From positions 1 to 40,290 of the forward strand of contig QIAB01000054.1 of assembly GCA_003225455.1 (NCBI GenBank): a stretch of 40,290 nt of DNA, read 5' to 3'. A model generated the notes under the pieces. The model did not search any database, was not told the DNA's origin, and worked only from the letters and a program-made list of their open reading frames with translations. A program made the translations under genes and the position numbers. The stretch comes from Acidobacteriota bacterium (GTDB lineage: Bacteria; Acidobacteriota; Terriglobia; Terriglobales; Acidobacteriaceae). Shown here piece after piece: positions 15,621-20,670 of this stretch (its first letter is position 1; each line of letters starts with the position of its first letter).

Positions 15621-15648
15621 TTGACAAGGGTTAAATAGCGTTTATATT
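15621..15648 (+). promoter_or_regulatory. Near-consensus housekeeping promoter of the GST-P450-DyP operon
   Basis: TTGACA at 15621-15626 matches the -35 consensus exactly. TATATT at 15643-15648 matches the -10 in five of six positions, and the spacer is 16 bases. It is the best promoter I found in the window. A transcript starting near 15655 would have a leader of about 160 bases carrying a short ORF. Confidence 0.7.
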
Positions 15649-15773
15649 TGCGCGGTACTTGTTTCGGTGTACTAACTCAGGAACCCAAGGCGCCGACTGA
15701 TCTTTCCCCCTGGCTGACGCCGGCGTTGCTCCGCGCCTAACCTTCTTTTGTCGTGGACCCGTGAGGAGAGTCC

Positions 15774-15812
15774 ATGAACAGGTCTGTGGTTGGAGTCCTC
15801 CGAGCGAGGTGA
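15774..15812 (+). CDS. Possible 12-residue leader peptide
   Basis: ATG 15774 follows GTGAGGAGAG, a strong ribosome site. The frame reads MNRSVVGVLRAR then TGA at 15810-15812. The TTG start of the GST gene lies five bases later at 15818, so ribosomes ending the leader could restart there. The peptide has three arginines in 12 codons. Whether it is translated or only a by-product of the sequence is unknown. Confidence 0.35.
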   Translation: MNRSVVGVLRAR

Positions 15813-15817
15813 GTTAG

Positions 15818-16600
15818 TTGACGGTCTCCACCATCTATCATCCGCGAATGATCTCGGTTCCAGTAAGTCCGTATTGCGAGCTGGCGCGGTGGATTCTGGA
15901 TCGACGCGGAATTCCTTACTACGAAGAATGTCACGCTCCCGTGTTCCATGTATTGGCCACCCGACGGTGTGGCGGTGGCAATGTGGTTCCAGTACTCGAC
16001 ACTGGTGAGGCGTCCCTTCTCGATGCGCGGGAAGTTGTCGATTACTATGAGGCCCGCGGGCCGCGTGAACAGGCGGTCTATCCCGAGGACACCGAAGCAC
16101 GCACCGATACGAAGAAATTGTTTGACTTCTTTTTCGATATCTTTGGCGTTGCCGTCCGTTCCTGGGCCTATGCTTACATGCTGCCGATGCAGCGGAGTAC
16201 GAGCCGTGCCTGGTCAGATCGAATCCCGTTGTGGGAACGAATAGGGGTGCTTTTCCTTTATCCTCTGCTCGCCGCAGCGGTTCGTCGCAATCTCGGATTA
16301 CAACCAGACACCATATCCCGGCAACAGCAAGTCATCGAAGCCGCGTTGGCGCAGGTGGAAGCGCGTCTTGCTGATGGGCGGCGCTTCTTGATGGGAGAGA
16401 AGTTGACTGCTCCCGATCTGGCCCTTGCTGCACTCGCTTGCCAACCTTGGATCAGTTACCGCCCGCCATGCGGGTTGCGGTGGACCACTGGCGTGCCCGC
16501 CCCGCCGGTCAGTTTATTCTGCGGCTCTATAGGGAAGAGCGACCTCCACGCCCCGTGGATTTGGTTGCAATCGGCAAGCATGCATCGGGGCAAACCTTAA
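15818..16600 (+). CDS. Glutathione S-transferase domain protein (frame continues into P450 after a one-base shift)
   Basis: Starts at TTG 15818 after GCGAGGTGAG. Thioredoxin-fold half: SPYC at residues 17-20 is in the usual active-site position, NVVPVLDTGE holds the cis-proline and SLLDAREV follows. Helical half: FLMGEKLTAPDLALAALA carries the N-capping T-x-x-D of GSTs. Family similarity stops at about residue 207 (base 16437); the remaining 54 codons to 16600 look like out-of-frame sequence. The expected GST tail (LDQLPPAMRVAVDHWRARP) is in the other frame, continuous with the P450. So the natural product is either a GST-P450 fusion broken by a lost base, or two separate proteins. The change is a -1 shift near 16438, with no classical slippery heptamer. 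Confidence 0.75.
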   Translation: MTVSTIYHPRMISVPVSPYCELARWILDRRGIPYYEECHAPVFHVLATRRCGGGNVVPVLDTGEASLLDAREVVDYYEARGPREQAVYPEDTEARTDTKKLFDFFFDIFGVAVRSWAYAYMLPMQRSTSRAWSDRIPLWERIGVLFLYPLLAAAVRRNLGLQPDTISRQQQVIEAALAQVEARLADGRRFLMGEKLTAPDLALAALACQPWISYRPPCGLRWTTGVPAPPVSLFCGSIGKSDLHAPWIWLQSASMHRGKP

Positions 16601-17940
16601 AAGACAGGCTCGCTAATTTTGTGATCCGTCCGGCTATCCTACGGCCTATTTTCGGGCTCCTACGGTGGTTATCTCCGATTCTTGTTTTCGGCAAACGTGC
16701 CATCATCACCCGGTATGACGATGTCGTAGAGATATTAAAGCGCGATACCGATTTCACCATCAGCCAGGTCAACGCCGAAAAGATCAACCAGATCGACGGC
16801 CCCTTCATTCTCGGCATGGATGATTCGCCACAATACGAGCAGGAAAAGGCGATGCTTCACCAGGTCGTCCGCCCTGACGATCTCGAGCGCATTCGTAAGT
16901 TTGTGAGGGAATCCGCCGCCACCCTGGTCGACGCTGCCCGTCCCCGGCGGCAGATTGACGTGGTGAGTGGCTTGGCGCGGGTTGTGCCGGTACGGCTGGT
17001 TGCTTCCTATTTCGGCATGCCGGGCCCCGACGACCCGACCATGATGCGCTGGATGCGCGATGTGTTTCACTACCTCTTCGCGGACCTTACCAATGACCCG
17101 AGGGTATTGCGGGACGCCCTCAGCTCCTCCACCGAGCTGCGCCGACATATGGATGGACAAATCGCCCTCCGTAAGTCTCTGCTATCCGAGCGGTACCAGG
17201 GCGAAGAGGTTTTGGACCGCCTACTGGCCATGCAAGACACGACCCTTTCGTGGCTTGGGGAAAACGTTGTGCGCCGGCAGACGGATGCGCCAATCCCACT
17301 CACCCAGCGTCTGGTACGAGGACAGGACCTCAATGACGACGTGCTGAGCCGACTACTGTCCATGCAAGATGCAGCGCATCCGTGGCTCGACGATAACGCC
17401 GTGCGTCGCAATCTCGCAGGTGTGATCGTCGGAGCGGTTGACACCACCTCGAAATTTGTAACTCTCGCGATCGACGAACTGCTGCGCCGGCCACAATCCT
17501 TGGCGGAAGCCCGCGAAGCAGCCCTGAAAGGCGATGTGGATGCAGTTCGGCGCTATGCCTATGAGGCCGTGCGCTTCAATCCCCATCACCCACTCCAGGT
17601 CCGTTTTTGTACGCGCGACACTCAAGTGGCCGCCGACCAGCGGCGTTCGAAGAATATTCCGGCGGGAACCTTCACCTATGTCGCGACTCTTTCCGCTATG
17701 TTCGATCCCGAAGTTTTTACCAGTCCCGAGCAGTTCAACGCCCAGCGTGAGGTTGAATACCTGCACTTCGGCTACGGCCTGCATACTTGTTTTGGTCGAG
17801 CCATCAATGGTGTGCAAATACCGGAATTGCTGGCCGCTCTGTTGCGCCTGCCCGATTTGCGCCGCGCACCTGGGAGCGCGGGGCACATCCTTTATGACGG
17901 CCCATTCCCCAACCGGTTGATTCTGGAATTCGACGCTTGA
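16438..17940 (+). CDS. Cytochrome P450, carrying the tail of the preceding GST domain
   Basis: From TTG 16438 there are 500 residues. The first 35 or so are GST C-terminal sequence (ARPAGQFILRLYREER), the rest a bacterial class P450. Visible motifs: I-helix AGVIVGAVDTT at 327-337, ExxR at Glu376/Arg379 and heme loop FGYGLHTCFG with Cys451. These suggest an active monooxygenase. No ferredoxin or reductase gene lies nearby. Residues around 258-280 and 302-324 are an imperfect repeat just before the I helix. No ribosome site suits the TTG, which supports a fusion with the upstream GST rather than independent translation. A gap of 17 bases separates it from the next gene. Confidence 0.88.
   Translation: MPTLDQLPPAMRVAVDHWRARPAGQFILRLYREERPPRPVDLVAIGKHASGQTLKDRLANFVIRPAILRPIFGLLRWLSPILVFGKRAIITRYDDVVEILKRDTDFTISQVNAEKINQIDGPFILGMDDSPQYEQEKAMLHQVVRPDDLERIRKFVRESAATLVDAARPRRQIDVVSGLARVVPVRLVASYFGMPGPDDPTMMRWMRDVFHYLFADLTNDPRVLRDALSSSTELRRHMDGQIALRKSLLSERYQGEEVLDRLLAMQDTTLSWLGENVVRRQTDAPIPLTQRLVRGQDLNDDVLSRLLSMQDAAHPWLDDNAVRRNLAGVIVGAVDTTSKFVTLAIDELLRRPQSLAEAREAALKGDVDAVRRYAYEAVRFNPHHPLQVRFCTRDTQVAADQRRSKNIPAGTFTYVATLSAMFDPEVFTSPEQFNAQREVEYLHFGYGLHTCFGRAINGVQIPELLAALLRLPDLRRAPGSAGHILYDGPFPNRLILEFDA
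17209..17409 (+). repeat. Imperfect tandem duplication within the P450
   Basis: Two 23-residue copies, VLDRLLAMQDTTLSWL... at 17209-17277 and VLSRLLSMQDAAHPWL... at 17341-17409, are 132 bases apart and share about 14 of 23 residues, both ending in a VRR-type triplet. The second copy is in the normal place before the I helix; the first is the extra unit. Confidence 0.8.
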
Positions 17941-17957
17941 GAAGCGGAGAAGTATCA

Positions 17958-19220
17958 ATGACACACACCGTTCTGACCTTTATCGCACGAGTGAAACCCG
18001 AGAAAACCGAGGACCTACGCAAGTTGCTCAAGCTGATTCAGGACGATCCCGAGAAAAATTCCTGCGTGCCCTTTCGCTCACTGCAGCTGCTTCACTTTGC
18101 CAGCTTTGTGTTGCATGAGTCCCAGGAATACGGCCCCTACCTGGTGTTCGAGAATAACTTCGACGGATTGTTGCAGGCGTACCTGGATGATTTGTACCTT
18201 CACGCTTCCCGCGGACTTCATCAAGTCTATAGTTGCTGTCAGGACTACACCGTCACAAGCGCCGGCGATCGCCAGAGATTGTTCGCCTATTTGCACGCGC
18301 ATGTGGTTCGGCCGAATGCATACCACATCGGCAATACCGGCCGAAGCGTGAAGCGTATTCTCGACGAACAAACGCTCCGTGATGCACTCGAAACGCGCGC
18401 CGATGCTCTGGCTCAGAGCGTCCCACCGCCTTCGCCGAGCGGTTTGTTAGGAGCCTTTCAAAATTTCGTACGCTCTGACCCGCAGTTTGCTTGGGTGTCC
18501 GGGGTCGGCCCACGTCAGACCTTTATCGAGTGGTTCATGCCGTGGGTCAAGTTCGTCGCAGTGATTCTCCTTGTGATTGTGTTACTGCCAATTTGGCTTC
18601 TTCCGGGAATCATCGGGCTCCTGGTGCTCCGGTTCAAGGAAAGCACCGACCCAGTACAATCGAGTGCCGCCAAGATCCAGAATGTCAAGGACCTGGTGGA
18701 CCGCGAAGACCGCACGCCCAGCGTACAAAACCACATGGCGAGCATCACCATTGTGAAGCCCGGCTGGCTTCGACGCCTGACGCTCCGGGTTGTGCTCTGG
18801 GCGATTAACTTACTGGCCCGCGCCAAAGCGACGCATGGCGAACTTAGCGGCATTCCGAGTATTCATTTTGCCCACTGGTCTGTCATCGATAACGGCCGGC
18901 GTTTGCTCTTCCTGAGCAACTTTGATGGTAGCTGGGAAAACTACCTGGACGACTTCATCGACAAGGCCAGCTCCGGCCTGACCGCCGTGTGGAGCAATAC
19001 GCTCAATTTCCCTCGCACACAATTCCTGCTCTGGGGTGGCGCGCGGGACGGTTCGAGATTCAAGGCGGTTGCCCGCGATAGTCAAACTGTTACCAATGCC
19101 TGGTATAGCGCGTATTGGGACCTAACCGTACAGGGGATCGATAACAACAGCAGTATTCGCGAAGACGTGCTAAATCCACTCGACGCAACGGCAACTAAAG
19201 CCTGGCTGCTGCGCTTGTAG
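17958..19220 (+). CDS. Membrane protein with two related domains, partner of the DyP peroxidase (unknown function)
   Basis: 420 residues from ATG 17958. Two halves share a pattern. The first has FENNFDG, YLDD, ASRGLHQVYS (about residues 62-95); the second has LSNFDG, YLDD, ASSGLTAVWS (about 316-340). Each half has the feel of a dimeric alpha/beta barrel, the fold also used twice in DyP peroxidases, but neither carries the DyP GxxDG or heme histidine signature. Between them lie two hydrophobic segments (FVAVILLVIVLLPIWLLP, GIIGLLVLRF), so the protein is membrane-bound with the two domains joined by a hairpin or re-entrant loop. It lies 17 bases after the P450 and 19 before the peroxidase. I infer it anchors or feeds the peroxidase. 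Confidence 0.75.
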   Translation: MTHTVLTFIARVKPEKTEDLRKLLKLIQDDPEKNSCVPFRSLQLLHFASFVLHESQEYGPYLVFENNFDGLLQAYLDDLYLHASRGLHQVYSCCQDYTVTSAGDRQRLFAYLHAHVVRPNAYHIGNTGRSVKRILDEQTLRDALETRADALAQSVPPPSPSGLLGAFQNFVRSDPQFAWVSGVGPRQTFIEWFMPWVKFVAVILLVIVLLPIWLLPGIIGLLVLRFKESTDPVQSSAAKIQNVKDLVDREDRTPSVQNHMASITIVKPGWLRRLTLRVVLWAINLLARAKATHGELSGIPSIHFAHWSVIDNGRRLLFLSNFDGSWENYLDDFIDKASSGLTAVWSNTLNFPRTQFLLWGGARDGSRFKAVARDSQTVTNAWYSAYWDLTVQGIDNNSSIREDVLNPLDATATKAWLLRL

Positions 19221-19239
19221 GAAATGAGGAATATCTGCC

Positions 19240-20670
19240 ATGGAATTGGAACGAAAAGACATCCAGGGCTTGATCGTGAGCTCCTACAAGCACCTTCCCT
19301 GCGCCGCGTACCTGCTGCTGCAGGTGAAAGATGCGACAGCGGCAAGAGCCTGGCTCGCTCGGAGTGTTGGCGATTTTACGACCGCAGAAACTAAGCACCC
19401 ACATTTTTCTACGAACGTGGCATTTACGTATAACGGACTGAAAAAACTTGGCTTAAATCAGGAGGTCCTTGCGACTTTTTCATTTCCCTTCCAGGAAGGA
19501 ATGGCGACCGAGCACCGTTCGAGAATTCTTGGCGATGGCAATGAGAACGCGCCGTCGAACTGGGAGTGGGGCGGCGCACAAGATAACTTGGTTGATCTGC
19601 TATTGCTAGTCTACGCGAGAGATGAAAGCGTGCTGAAAGCGCAGCTTGAACATTGGCAGCAGGAACTCAGGGGAAGCGGTGGATTCGGAGAGCCGCGCAT
19701 ACTCCATGCCCAGCGCCAGCCGAAGAACAATCCTGAGCATTTCGGTTTTCACGATGGAATTGGGCAGCCGGTCATGGAAGGCACCGGGAACAAGCAACGC
19801 CAGCTAGCCAGAACGCACCATGCCACCGAGCTGCCGGCCGGTGAGTTTCTGCTGGGACATGCCAATCTATACGGAGCCACTTCCGATACTCCCGTAGTGC
19901 GCCCGGAAGATGATCCCCAGCAGTTGCTAACCACGGTGCCCGACAGTGCTACCGCCTTAGGTGCCAGACCTGGAATGCACGACCTCGGCCGCAATGGGAC
20001 GTATCTTGTCTTTCGCCAGTTGGCCCAGGATGTTGCCAAGTTTTGGAACTTCCTGGACAAAGCGACCTGCGATCCGAACGGCAAGAGCAACCCCTCAGCG
20101 CGCGACCATCTGGGAGCGAAGTTTGTCGGCCGGCGGAAAAGCGGCGCTCCCCTGGTTTTGTCCCCACAACAAGATGATCCTCGGCTGGACAACGAAAACA
20201 ATTTCAGCTATATCGACAAAGATCCCCAGGGTTTTGCCTGCCCGATTGGAGCCCACATACGCCGCTCCAATCCTCGGGATTCACTCGGCCCCGATCCGCA
20301 GGCCGCGCTAAATACGGCGAACCGTCACCGTATATTGCGTCGAGGACGCTCCTACGGGCCCCGCTTGACCGATCCGCTGGTGGATGATGGGAAAGAACGC
20401 GGTCTTCATTTCATCTGCCTCAATAGTGATATCGAGCGTCAATTCGAGTTTGTTCAGCAGACCTGGATCAACAATCCCGTATTCGGAGGCTTGTATGAGG
20501 AGGTCGATCCACTGGTCGGCAATCTCGCGAAGGGGGACGCGCTCTTCACCGTCCAGGGGGAGCCGCTGCGCGCCCGAGTACACAATCTCAGCCGATTCGT
20601 TATTGTCAAAGGTGGGTCTTATTTTTTCTTACCCAGCATTCGAACGTTGGGCTACCTTGCCAATCTGTAG
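19240..20670 (+). CDS. DyP-type heme peroxidase
   Basis: 476 residues from ATG 19240. The GxxDG motif is GFHDG at 169-173, with Asp172 as the peroxide-activating acid. The proximal heme histidine is His339 in CPIGAHIRRSNPRD, and RILRRGRSYG follows with the conserved arginine. Length and inserts fit the larger DyP subgroups more than the short bacterial type-B enzymes. No Tat signal or cargo-loading tail is visible, so it is probably cytoplasmic or held at the membrane by its neighbour. It would oxidise phenolic or dye-like compounds with hydrogen peroxide; its true substrate is unknown. Last complete gene of the GST-P450 operon. A GC-rich hairpin at 20682-20695 follows without a T run. Confidence 0.93.
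   Translation: MELERKDIQGLIVSSYKHLPCAAYLLLQVKDATAARAWLARSVGDFTTAETKHPHFSTNVAFTYNGLKKLGLNQEVLATFSFPFQEGMATEHRSRILGDGNENAPSNWEWGGAQDNLVDLLLLVYARDESVLKAQLEHWQQELRGSGGFGEPRILHAQRQPKNNPEHFGFHDGIGQPVMEGTGNKQRQLARTHHATELPAGEFLLGHANLYGATSDTPVVRPEDDPQQLLTTVPDSATALGARPGMHDLGRNGTYLVFRQLAQDVAKFWNFLDKATCDPNGKSNPSARDHLGAKFVGRRKSGAPLVLSPQQDDPRLDNENNFSYIDKDPQGFACPIGAHIRRSNPRDSLGPDPQAALNTANRHRILRRGRSYGPRLTDPLVDDGKERGLHFICLNSDIERQFEFVQQTWINNPVFGGLYEEVDPLVGNLAKGDALFTVQGEPLRARVHNLSRFVIVKGGSYFFLPSIRTLGYLANL

What the first reader, a model, noticed from the sequence alone, without database searches (positions are those of the whole stretch)
15621..20670. A compact GST - P450 - duplicated membrane protein - DyP peroxidase operon
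Four activities are packed with gaps of 17-19 bases behind one strong promoter: a GST domain joined in series to a P450, an unknown membrane protein built of two related halves, and a DyP heme peroxidase. GST, P450 and DyP are all detoxifying or oxidising enzymes, but I know of no described system uniting them with a two-domain membrane partner. A working idea is a membrane-held oxidation complex: the P450 makes or uses an electrophile, the GST handles the glutathione-type conjugate, and the peroxidase finishes the substrate or removes peroxide. The protein roles are seen from motifs; the pathway is inference.
Basis: partly seen in the sequence, partly recalled or inferred. Interest (0 to 1): 0.85.

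Follow-up and report, generated by a model that had tools for sequence, protein, structure and literature searches.

The report
Membrane-anchored P450-DyP haem enzyme module
A gene set for two haem enzymes and an unnamed membrane protein, which in many unrelated bacteria stays together or is fused into one protein, may make or rearrange oxidised fats at the cell membrane, and no description of it was found in the papers that could be searched.

Summary
The operon is real and the association is strong. Behind a sigma-70-like promoter lie a GST, a P450, an unannotated two-half membrane protein ("MEM") and a DyP peroxidase, with gaps of 17 and 19 bases. Correction: GST and P450 are not one open frame. 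The GST's last ~39 residues lie in the P450 frame and ~12 residues of loop are missing.

MEM is a pseudo-dimeric ABM-type barrel with membrane helices between its halves. In 97 of 97 related loci (eight or more phyla) DyP is its neighbour; 58 also have a P450; in 31, P450-MEM-DyP is one chain. GST is optional (4 of 97).

Partner exchange suggests the chemistry. Without the P450, 13 loci carry a catalase-related gene, weakly like coral allene oxide synthase; 7 of these also a COX-like peroxidase. Without MEM-DyP, the same P450 group sits beside COX-like or RoxA/10S-DOX-like proteins. Ferredoxin-like ORFs show no excess, and 30 of 30 fused P450s examined (one clade) lack the I-helix acid.

Best reading: a membrane-held module forming and rearranging (lipid) hydroperoxides, analogous to DOX-CYP or AOS-LOX pairs. 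Substrate and activity are untested, and the window's own P450 keeps the canonical acid-threonine pair.

The parts
15621..15648 (+). sigma-70-like promoter, TTGACA-16-TATATT
   Evidence: consensus scan, 11 of 12 matches; 4 sites found in the region against 2.7 expected (sd 1.5); not evidence of function by itself
15818..16438 (+). GST, residues 1-207 (frame 2)
   Evidence: PF13417 E 1.3e-8, PF13410 E 2.1e-7; same profile group as GSTs beside the module in L037, L041, L051, L067
16438..16554 (+). displaced C-terminal tail of the same GST, now in the frame of the P450
   Evidence: first 39 residues of the P450 ORF align to the C termini of the four related GSTs, E 1e-9 to 5e-5 in a 4-sequence database
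16438..17940 (+). P450 ORF; P450 domain 16618-17937, Cys-haem motif FGYGLHTCFG, ExxR, I-helix GAVDTT
   Evidence: PF00067 E 3.8e-17; motifs aligned with 57 other rows
17209..17412 (+). old internal duplication in the P450 just before the I helix (copies 17209-17280 and 17341-17412), 14 of 24 residues identical
   Evidence: sequence; insertion absent from the 11 other rows printed; no direct repeat of 20 nt or more found
17958..19220 (+). MEM: unannotated two-half membrane protein, pseudo-dimeric ABM-type alpha+beta barrel
   Evidence: no family match; AlphaFold2 model pLDDT 89.7; Z 15.8, rmsd 3.8 over 221 residues to WhiE-ORFI 9lmn
18522..18644 (+). membrane helix region between the two barrel halves
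   Evidence: helix 189-229 in the model; linker hydropathy peak 2.92, two segments
19240..20670 (+). DyP-type peroxidase, class V-like, with GFHDG, proximal His and distal Arg
   Evidence: PF21105, PF20628, TIGR01413 117.9 bits against cut-off 100.5; closest solved chain D. radiodurans DyP 8re3/8re2

Best explanation
A membrane-anchored module that forms and rearranges hydroperoxides, most likely of unsaturated lipids. Shown by sequence and model: MEM is a pseudo-dimeric ABM-type barrel whose halves are joined by hydrophobic helices; it is tied to a DyP with an intact active site, often covalently; a haem partner (a P450, or a catalase-related protein) completes the module in most loci. Inferred: MEM holds the DyP at the bilayer and may bind the hydrophobic substrate; DyP, with peroxide, oxidises an unsaturated acyl or similar chain, or works on its hydroperoxide; the partner then isomerises, dehydrates or cleaves the hydroperoxide without a redox partner, as self-sufficient CYPs of DOX-CYP fusions and catalase-related allene oxide synthases or hydroperoxide lyases do; an optional GST may trap the reactive product. 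In the window the GST is probably disabled, leaving P450-MEM-DyP.
For: DyP within 500 bp of MEM in 97 of 97 loci that were found by MEM alone; P450 within 1.5 kb on the same strand in 58 of 97; P450-MEM-DyP one chain in 31, MEM-DyP one chain in 18 more (one of them, L016, by an overlapping reading), DyP-P450 one chain in 1. The 30 fused P450s in the tree are one clade, 100/100. Partner exchange: P450 58, catalase-related 13, both 0 of 97 (hypergeometric 1.7e-6, loci not independent); COX-like peroxidase 8, none with the P450 (Pfam PF03098 checked on three of the eight). The catalase-related profile finds coral allene oxide synthase 1u5u first (whole-sequence E 4.4e-4) and NCBI names the L021 member 'catalase family protein'. 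In the 13 best plasmid matches of the P450 (H21-H33): MEM-DyP in 4 (in L122 the DyP is taken from its likeness to L014), COX-like peroxidase in 3, dihaem cytochrome c peroxidase or 'cytochrome c' in 5, cut off by the record start in 1 (L115 and L116 tested and RoxA-like, PF21419). Those with COX-like or RoxA-like neighbours (six rows, group 100/99) fall among the MEM-DyP P450s, beside L027/L028 at 88/78, while four unlinked P450s fall outside. RoxA-like PA2077/PA2078 are fatty-acid 10S-dioxygenase and diol synthase (PMC4496055, abstract and passages). Electron supply: 12 ferredoxin-pattern hits in small ORFs against 15 in shuffled ones in 64 loci; 30 of 30 fused P450s examined have Pro in place of the I-helix acid. 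DyP catalytic residues kept: Asp 96, His 97, Arg 97 of 97 rows. Some loci add a class 3 lipase (L027, L028) or a patatin (L112).
Against: No activity or substrate is known. The window's own P450 keeps Asp-Thr-Thr, and 18 of 28 non-fused rows keep acid plus Thr, as ordinary O2-using P450s do; the loss in the 30 fused rows lies in one clade and may be one event. DyPs are not known fatty-acid dioxygenases (recalled), and the nearest solved one, D. radiodurans DyP, is reported inactive at physiological pH (PMC10820274, start of abstract). 25 of 97 loci have none of P450, catalase-related or COX-like gene in reach (some contigs are short), so the core may work without them. The catalase likeness is weak: best single stretch against 1u5u has an independent E of 0.048, no Pfam catalase match at 0.01-0.05 in the members scanned, and 12 of 13 have Asn where coral AOS has the catalytic His67. 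The printed Nostoc 10S-DOX motifs that I searched were not found in the nine COX-like proteins tested. The fold likeness of MEM (ABM, WhiE) fits many small hydrophobic substrates. The tree carries long-branch warnings and was rooted at its midpoint for drawing only.
Confidence: 0.45

Rival explanations
1. Detoxification of xenobiotic or aromatic compounds: P450 activates, GST conjugates, DyP removes radicals or peroxide, all held at the membrane.
For: GST of one profile group beside the module in the window (upstream) and in 4 of 97 loci (downstream in three, divergent in one); homologues on plasmids of Novosphingobium aromaticivorans and of Skermanella from hydrocarbon-contaminated sand.
Against: This GST was not found in 93 of 97 loci and is broken here; among 86 flanking proteins no catabolic family is shared by two or more; partner families elsewhere are lipid or hydroperoxide enzymes.
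Confidence: 0.15
2. Oxidative tailoring of a specialised hydrophobic metabolite (polyketide, terpenoid, carotenoid or hopanoid): MEM as ABM-type cyclase or oxygenase, P450 and DyP as tailoring enzymes.
For: Closest fold of MEM is WhiE-ORFI of a polyketide pathway, then Abx(+)O; RoxA itself cleaves polyisoprene (PMC4496055, passages); P450 and ABM proteins are common tailoring enzymes (recalled).
Against: No polyketide, peptide or terpene synthase family is shared by two or more of 86 flanking proteins (single-member families beyond the first 25 of 98 were not shown); very wide taxonomic spread of one compact module; a shared fold shows no function.
Confidence: 0.2
3. Membrane peroxide defence: DyP removes peroxides formed by P450 uncoupling or arriving at the membrane; MEM is only an anchor.
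For: DyP active-site residues intact; cyclase/TPR and Crp-type regulators next to the fused loci would suit a stress response.
Against: Does not explain why the P450 is replaced by catalase-related and COX-like genes, or accompanied by COX-like or RoxA-like ones where MEM-DyP is absent, nor the two conserved barrel halves of MEM.
Confidence: 0.12

Closest known systems
Fungal DOX-CYP fusions (linoleate diol, allene oxide and epoxy alcohol synthases)
   Same: Two haem enzymes in one chain, a hydroperoxide-making part and a self-sufficient P450 (PMC13049297, abstract and passages; PMC4420034, passages).
   Different: The other enzyme is DyP plus an ABM-type membrane barrel, not a COX-like dioxygenase; in the three-part fusion the P450 comes first; activity untested.
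Cyanobacterial 10S-DOX plus catalase-related hydroperoxide lyase; coral AOS-LOX
   Same: Seven loci of the P450-less variant carry a COX-like peroxidase and a catalase-related protein beside MEM-DyP (PMC13049297 and PMC5617202, passages).
   Different: Adds MEM-DyP; distal His is Asn in 12 of 13; the printed 10S-DOX motifs searched were not found in nine COX-like proteins.
Pseudomonas oleate-diol synthase pair PA2077/PA2078 (RoxA-like dihaem proteins)
   Same: RoxA-like proteins stand beside P450s that group with the window's family.
   Different: RoxA-like proteins were not searched for with a profile in MEM-DyP loci; the family is not shared by two or more of 86 flanking proteins there. The pair is described without P450 or DyP partners in the passages seen (PMC4496055).
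D. radiodurans class V DyP (8re2, 8re3)
   Same: Nearest solved relative of the DyP, E 3.6e-57.
   Different: Studied as a single protein; the words operon, neighb* and P450 do not occur in the paper's text (PMC10820274).
ABM/SchA-like proteins (WhiE-ORFI, 9lmn)
   Same: Two ferredoxin-like halves forming one barrel, Z 15.8 over 221 residues.
   Different: 12% identity; MEM has membrane helices between the halves and no detectable sequence family match.

Membership tests
DyP-type peroxidase | GxxDG distal Asp, proximal His, distal Arg, DyP family score | tested here: met
   TIGR01413 117.9 bits against cut-off 100.5; Asp 96, His 97, Arg 97 of 97 rows, window included
Cytochrome P450 | Cys haem motif and ExxR | tested here: met
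   PF00067 62.6 bits; Cys 58 of 58, Arg 58 of 58, Glu 57 of 58 rows
Canonical O2-activating, redox-partner-dependent P450 | I-helix acid-alcohol pair; ferredoxin or reductase nearby or fused | tested here: inconclusive
   Pair kept in the window and in 18 of 28 non-fused rows (window, L019 and L020 among the 28), acid lost in 30 of 30 fused rows; no ferredoxin-pattern excess over shuffles in 64 loci
Glutathione transferase | complete thioredoxin-like N domain and helical C domain in one frame | tested here: not met
   Both domains recognisable but the C-terminal tail is in another frame and 12 residues are missing
ABM-type dimeric alpha+beta barrel (MEM) | two ferredoxin-like halves forming one barrel | tested here: met
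   AlphaFold2 pLDDT 89.7; Foldseek E 4.7e-5 and Z 15.8 to 9lmn; fold only, not function
DOX-CYP fusion family | N-terminal COX-like (animal haem peroxidase) domain fused to P450 | tested here: not met
   No PF03098 match in the window proteins or in the fused L015 protein
Catalase-related AOS/HPL (partner in 13 other loci, not in the window) | catalase fold with distal His and Thr, proximal Tyr | tested here: inconclusive
   Profile finds 1u5u at whole-sequence E 4.4e-4, best stretch 0.048; no Pfam catalase match in the members scanned; His67 position is Asn in 12 of 13
Oxylipin-forming system | oxygenated fatty acid product | not testable with these tools
   needs enzyme assays

The most novel reading that the evidence does not exclude
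MEM-DyP is a previously unrecognised kind of membrane lipid oxygenase: a DyP that, seated on an ABM-type membrane barrel, makes the hydroperoxide, taking the place held elsewhere by COX-like, LOX or RoxA-like dioxygenases, and hands it within one polypeptide to a peroxide-driven P450. This would give DyPs a physiological substrate and bacteria a widespread further route to oxylipin-like signals.
Probability: 0.3. Interest if true: 0.92.

Novelty: new variant of a known kind. Interest (0 to 1): 0.76.

Why it matters
The natural role of DyP peroxidases is called unclear in print (PMC10820274, passages). Here a DyP subfamily stands beside an unannotated membrane-barrel family in 97 of 97 loci, and often joined to a P450 in one chain, in eight or more phyla. 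That turns an open question into a testable one: one natural polypeptide of about 1,400 residues can be expressed and its substrate sought. If the lipid reading is right, tandem hydroperoxide-making and -rearranging haem pairs, known from fungi, corals and cyanobacteria, are far more widespread in bacteria and built from different parts.

Tried and rejected
A fold of a natural MEM-DyP fusion (L099, 985 residues, 13 sequences) gave a poor model (pLDDT 64.4, pTM 0.47), so nothing is said about how the two touch; it was used only for a Foldseek look that found known DyPs. The profile of MEM against PDB sequences gave only a weak match to CSC1-like channel ERD4 (E 0.0023), not followed because the structure search pointed elsewhere. 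The printed 10S-DOX motifs that I searched were not found in nine COX-like proteins. A recent duplication in the P450 was looked for at DNA level and not found. Ferredoxin-like ORFs were no commoner than in shuffles (12 against 15; the 64 loci are the 58, the window and five with only an unlinked P450). Close relatives: MEM is in 1 of 41 genomes of the nearest set, the window's own, and in 12 of 396 of the phylum sample, the window's included; no tool that I used named the organism. Paper searches (open-licence PMC only) showed no P450-DyP fusion or MEM-DyP module among the titles and abstract starts listed (12 of 64 papers, 15 of 34, 10 of 11 were listed); most subscription papers are not in that library. 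A review of octadecanoids held none of five terms in its first 300,000 characters (PMC11719350).

L019 and L020 (P450 found, no MEM) and the window are outside the 97. Three loci with partial P450s (L056, L057, L096) count among the 58 and, for L096, among the 31, but are not in the 58-row P450 alignment, which instead holds the window, L019 and L020. Two of the 58 (L077, L104) have divergent P450s on a long branch and may be of another family. DyP residue counts use the 97 rows longer than 380 residues, the window included. The flanking-protein census scanned 86 of 140 candidates, already thinned by 22 loci left out as near-copies. H23 and H24 are two records of one strain with identical P450s. 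Outputs were cut in the middle; the counts come and from the lines that were shown.
Full report
What is there. Between 15818 and 20670 on the + strand lie a GST, a P450, an unannotated protein (here MEM) and a DyP peroxidase. The gaps after P450 and after MEM are 17 and 19 nt. A TTGACA-16-TATATT box lies at 15621-15648, 11 of 12. That they form one transcript is likely from this layout but was not tested.

A correction. The GST and P450 are not one open frame. The GST is read in frame 2 to residue 207; the next conserved residues of its subfamily appear in frame 1 at the very start of the P450 ORF, where 39 residues align to the C termini of four related GSTs. Against each of the four, 12 residues are missing and the frame changes, as after a deletion of about 37 nt. 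There is no stop between the GST tail and the P450 domain, so a fusion may have existed. Assembly error cannot be excluded. The P450 also carries an old internal duplication (period 44 residues) before its I helix.

What MEM is. No Pfam, NCBIfam or single-sequence PDB match. One profile matches both halves, E 1.2e-37 and 7.6e-61. AlphaFold2 gives a confident model, pLDDT 89.7. Foldseek and VIA-align place it with ABM/SchA-like barrels, first WhiE-ORFI 9lmn (E 4.7e-5; Z 15.8, rmsd 3.8, 221 residues), then Abx(+)O (Z 11.8). Between the halves lie hydrophobic helices: 89 of 91 two-domain ORFs, the window's included, have a linker segment with hydropathy 1.6 or more, while 0 of 9 single-domain ORFs have such a segment anywhere; in L030 and L031 the two halves are separate adjacent genes. 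So the membrane linker seems to have come with the joining of two halves (inference).

Conservation of the set. MEM is in 1 of 41 genomes of the nearest set (the window's own), in 12 of 396 of the phylum sample, the window's included, and in 27 plasmid records, so it is patchy and perhaps mobile (inference). A scan of the genome-contig collection with a MEM profile gave 297 relatives; the best 80 were kept. DyP lies within 500 bp of MEM in 97 of 97, a P450 within 1.5 kb on the same strand in 58 of 97. By record titles and tree labels these loci span Actinomycetota, Bacteroidota, Pseudomonadota, Acidobacteriota, Cyanobacteriota, Gemmatimonas, Chloroflexi and Myxococcota. In 31 loci P450-MEM-DyP is a single ORF, mostly of about 1,390 to 1,640 residues, for example the 1443-residue WP_011907039 of Novosphingobium aromaticivorans plasmid pNL2; in L022 DyP and P450 are one ORF. 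The 30 fused P450s in the tree form one clade, 100/100. A GST of the same profile group is beside the module in 4 of 97 loci, downstream in L037, L041, L051 and divergent in L067; the profile did not take up the ordinary GST annotated in L018.

Partner exchange. In 13 of the 39 loci without the adjacent P450 there is a ~400-residue protein next to or near MEM-DyP. Its profile finds coral allene oxide synthase 1u5u (whole-sequence E 4.4e-4), AOS-LOX 3dy5 and mini-catalase 3e4w (the name mini-catalase for 3e4w is recalled). This is a weak match: the best single stretch has an independent E of 0.048, and the members scanned have no Pfam catalase match, though NCBI calls the L021 member a catalase family protein. 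By that alignment the distal Thr66-His67 of coral AOS, named in PMC5617202 (passages), is Gly-Asn in 12 of 13; L021 keeps His. An animal haem peroxidase (COX-like) is near the module in 8 loci, 7 of them with the catalase-related gene (PF03098 checked on three); all eight show a Tyr-x-x-His context like the COX site by eye (sequences; the reading is mine), but lack the Nostoc 10S-DOX motifs that I searched. P450 and catalase-related gene never share a locus (58 and 13 of 97, hypergeometric 1.7e-6, loci not independent), nor do P450 and COX-like gene. GMC oxidoreductases stand near two loci, class 3 lipases near two, a patatin near one, among the neighbours tested. From the P450 side: the 13 best plasmid matches have MEM-DyP (4), a COX-like peroxidase (3), a dihaem cytochrome c-type protein (5) or are cut off by the record start (1); the next-ranked Pantoea P450 has none of these. 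Two of the dihaem proteins were tested and are RoxA-like, PF21419 (PDB match 4b2n). PMC4496055 (abstract and passages) puts the Pseudomonas fatty-acid 10S-dioxygenase and diol synthase in the RoxA group. Six such P450 rows group together (100/99) and fall among the MEM-DyP P450s, beside L027/L028 at the lower support 88/78, while four unlinked P450s fall outside (rooted at the midpoint, with long-branch warnings).

How it probably works. One P450 group stands beside MEM-DyP, COX-like or RoxA-like proteins; MEM-DyP stands beside a P450 or a catalase-related protein. The common denominator is making and transforming hydroperoxides, best known for unsaturated fatty acids. Ferredoxin-pattern hits in small ORFs do not exceed a shuffled control in 64 loci (12 against 15), and no reductase family is shared by two or more of 86 flanking proteins. 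In 30 of 30 fused P450s examined the I-helix acid is Pro, as would suit peroxide-driven chemistry, though this is one clade. DyP residues are intact in nearly all rows. I therefore infer a membrane module in which DyP-MEM oxidises a lipid-like substrate and the partner rearranges the hydroperoxide. Against this: 18 of 28 non-fused rows, the window's P450 among them, keep acid and Thr, so monooxygenation with a distant redox partner is open; 25 of 97 loci have none of the three partners in reach; no substrate is known.

Regulation. In 28 of the 31 fused loci a ~600-residue protein lies directly upstream (in the other three the contig begins at or near the module); cyclase and TPR domains were found in the member tested from L049 and TPR in that from L018. 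The similarity cluster counts 36 loci, but its other eight members lie elsewhere and may be joined by repeats alone. A Crp-type protein (tested in L050) belongs to a cluster of 27 loci, 26 of them fused, mostly directly downstream on the other strand. No such neighbour was noted in the window, where it was not searched for with a profile.

Comparison with the known. It works most like fungal DOX-CYP fusions and the cyanobacterial or coral dioxygenase plus catalase-related pairs (PMC13049297, PMC5617202, PMC4420034, passages), but it is not a member: it lacks a COX-like or LOX domain match. Its DyP is nearest to D. radiodurans DyP; DyP roles are called unclear (PMC10820274, passages). Ten paper searches gave no description of the module in what they listed, within an open-licence library.

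Verdict. A widespread, apparently undescribed module with natural three-part fusions deserves bench work.

Noticed in passing
L049 5898-7670, L050 12007-12726 and matching positions in other fused loci: A nucleotide-cyclase/TPR protein directly upstream in 28 of 31 fused loci (the other three contigs begin at or near the module) and a Crp-type regulator near 26 fused loci, suggesting cyclic-nucleotide control of the fused form (families tested on single members).
   Followed up: partly
L043 8674-9897, L025 9999-11237 and 11 others (alignment A3): A catalase-related family with Gly-Asn where coral allene oxide synthase has Thr66-His67; L021 keeps the His.
   Followed up: partly
L043 4844-5281, L023 12282-12722, L025 11309-11758, L053 6901-7332: A small protein of about 146 residues recurs in the catalase-related variant; the L043 member has no Pfam match and no convincing PDB match.
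   Followed up: no
L115, L118, L119, L120 (Methylobacterium plasmids): A four-gene cassette of dihaem cytochrome c peroxidase, helix-turn-helix regulator, P450 and peptidoglycan-binding protein is kept on four plasmids (RoxA-like family tested only in L115).
   Followed up: partly
L116 1-7164 (Bradyrhizobium barranii plasmid): P450 of the same group beside a RoxA-like cytochrome c, with an oleate hydratase annotated about 3 kb upstream of the latter.
   Followed up: no
L055, L071 (Amycolatopsis): An unrelated P450 divergent from the COX-like peroxidase, which is followed by MEM, DyP and the catalase-related gene: four haem protein families in one place.
   Followed up: partly
window 17209-17412: Internal duplication (period 44 residues) in the P450 just before the I helix, absent from the 11 other rows printed.
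   Followed up: partly
L029 7101-9200: The one locus of the 97 whose only DyP comes before MEM; MEM is a single half without a hydrophobic segment there.
   Followed up: no
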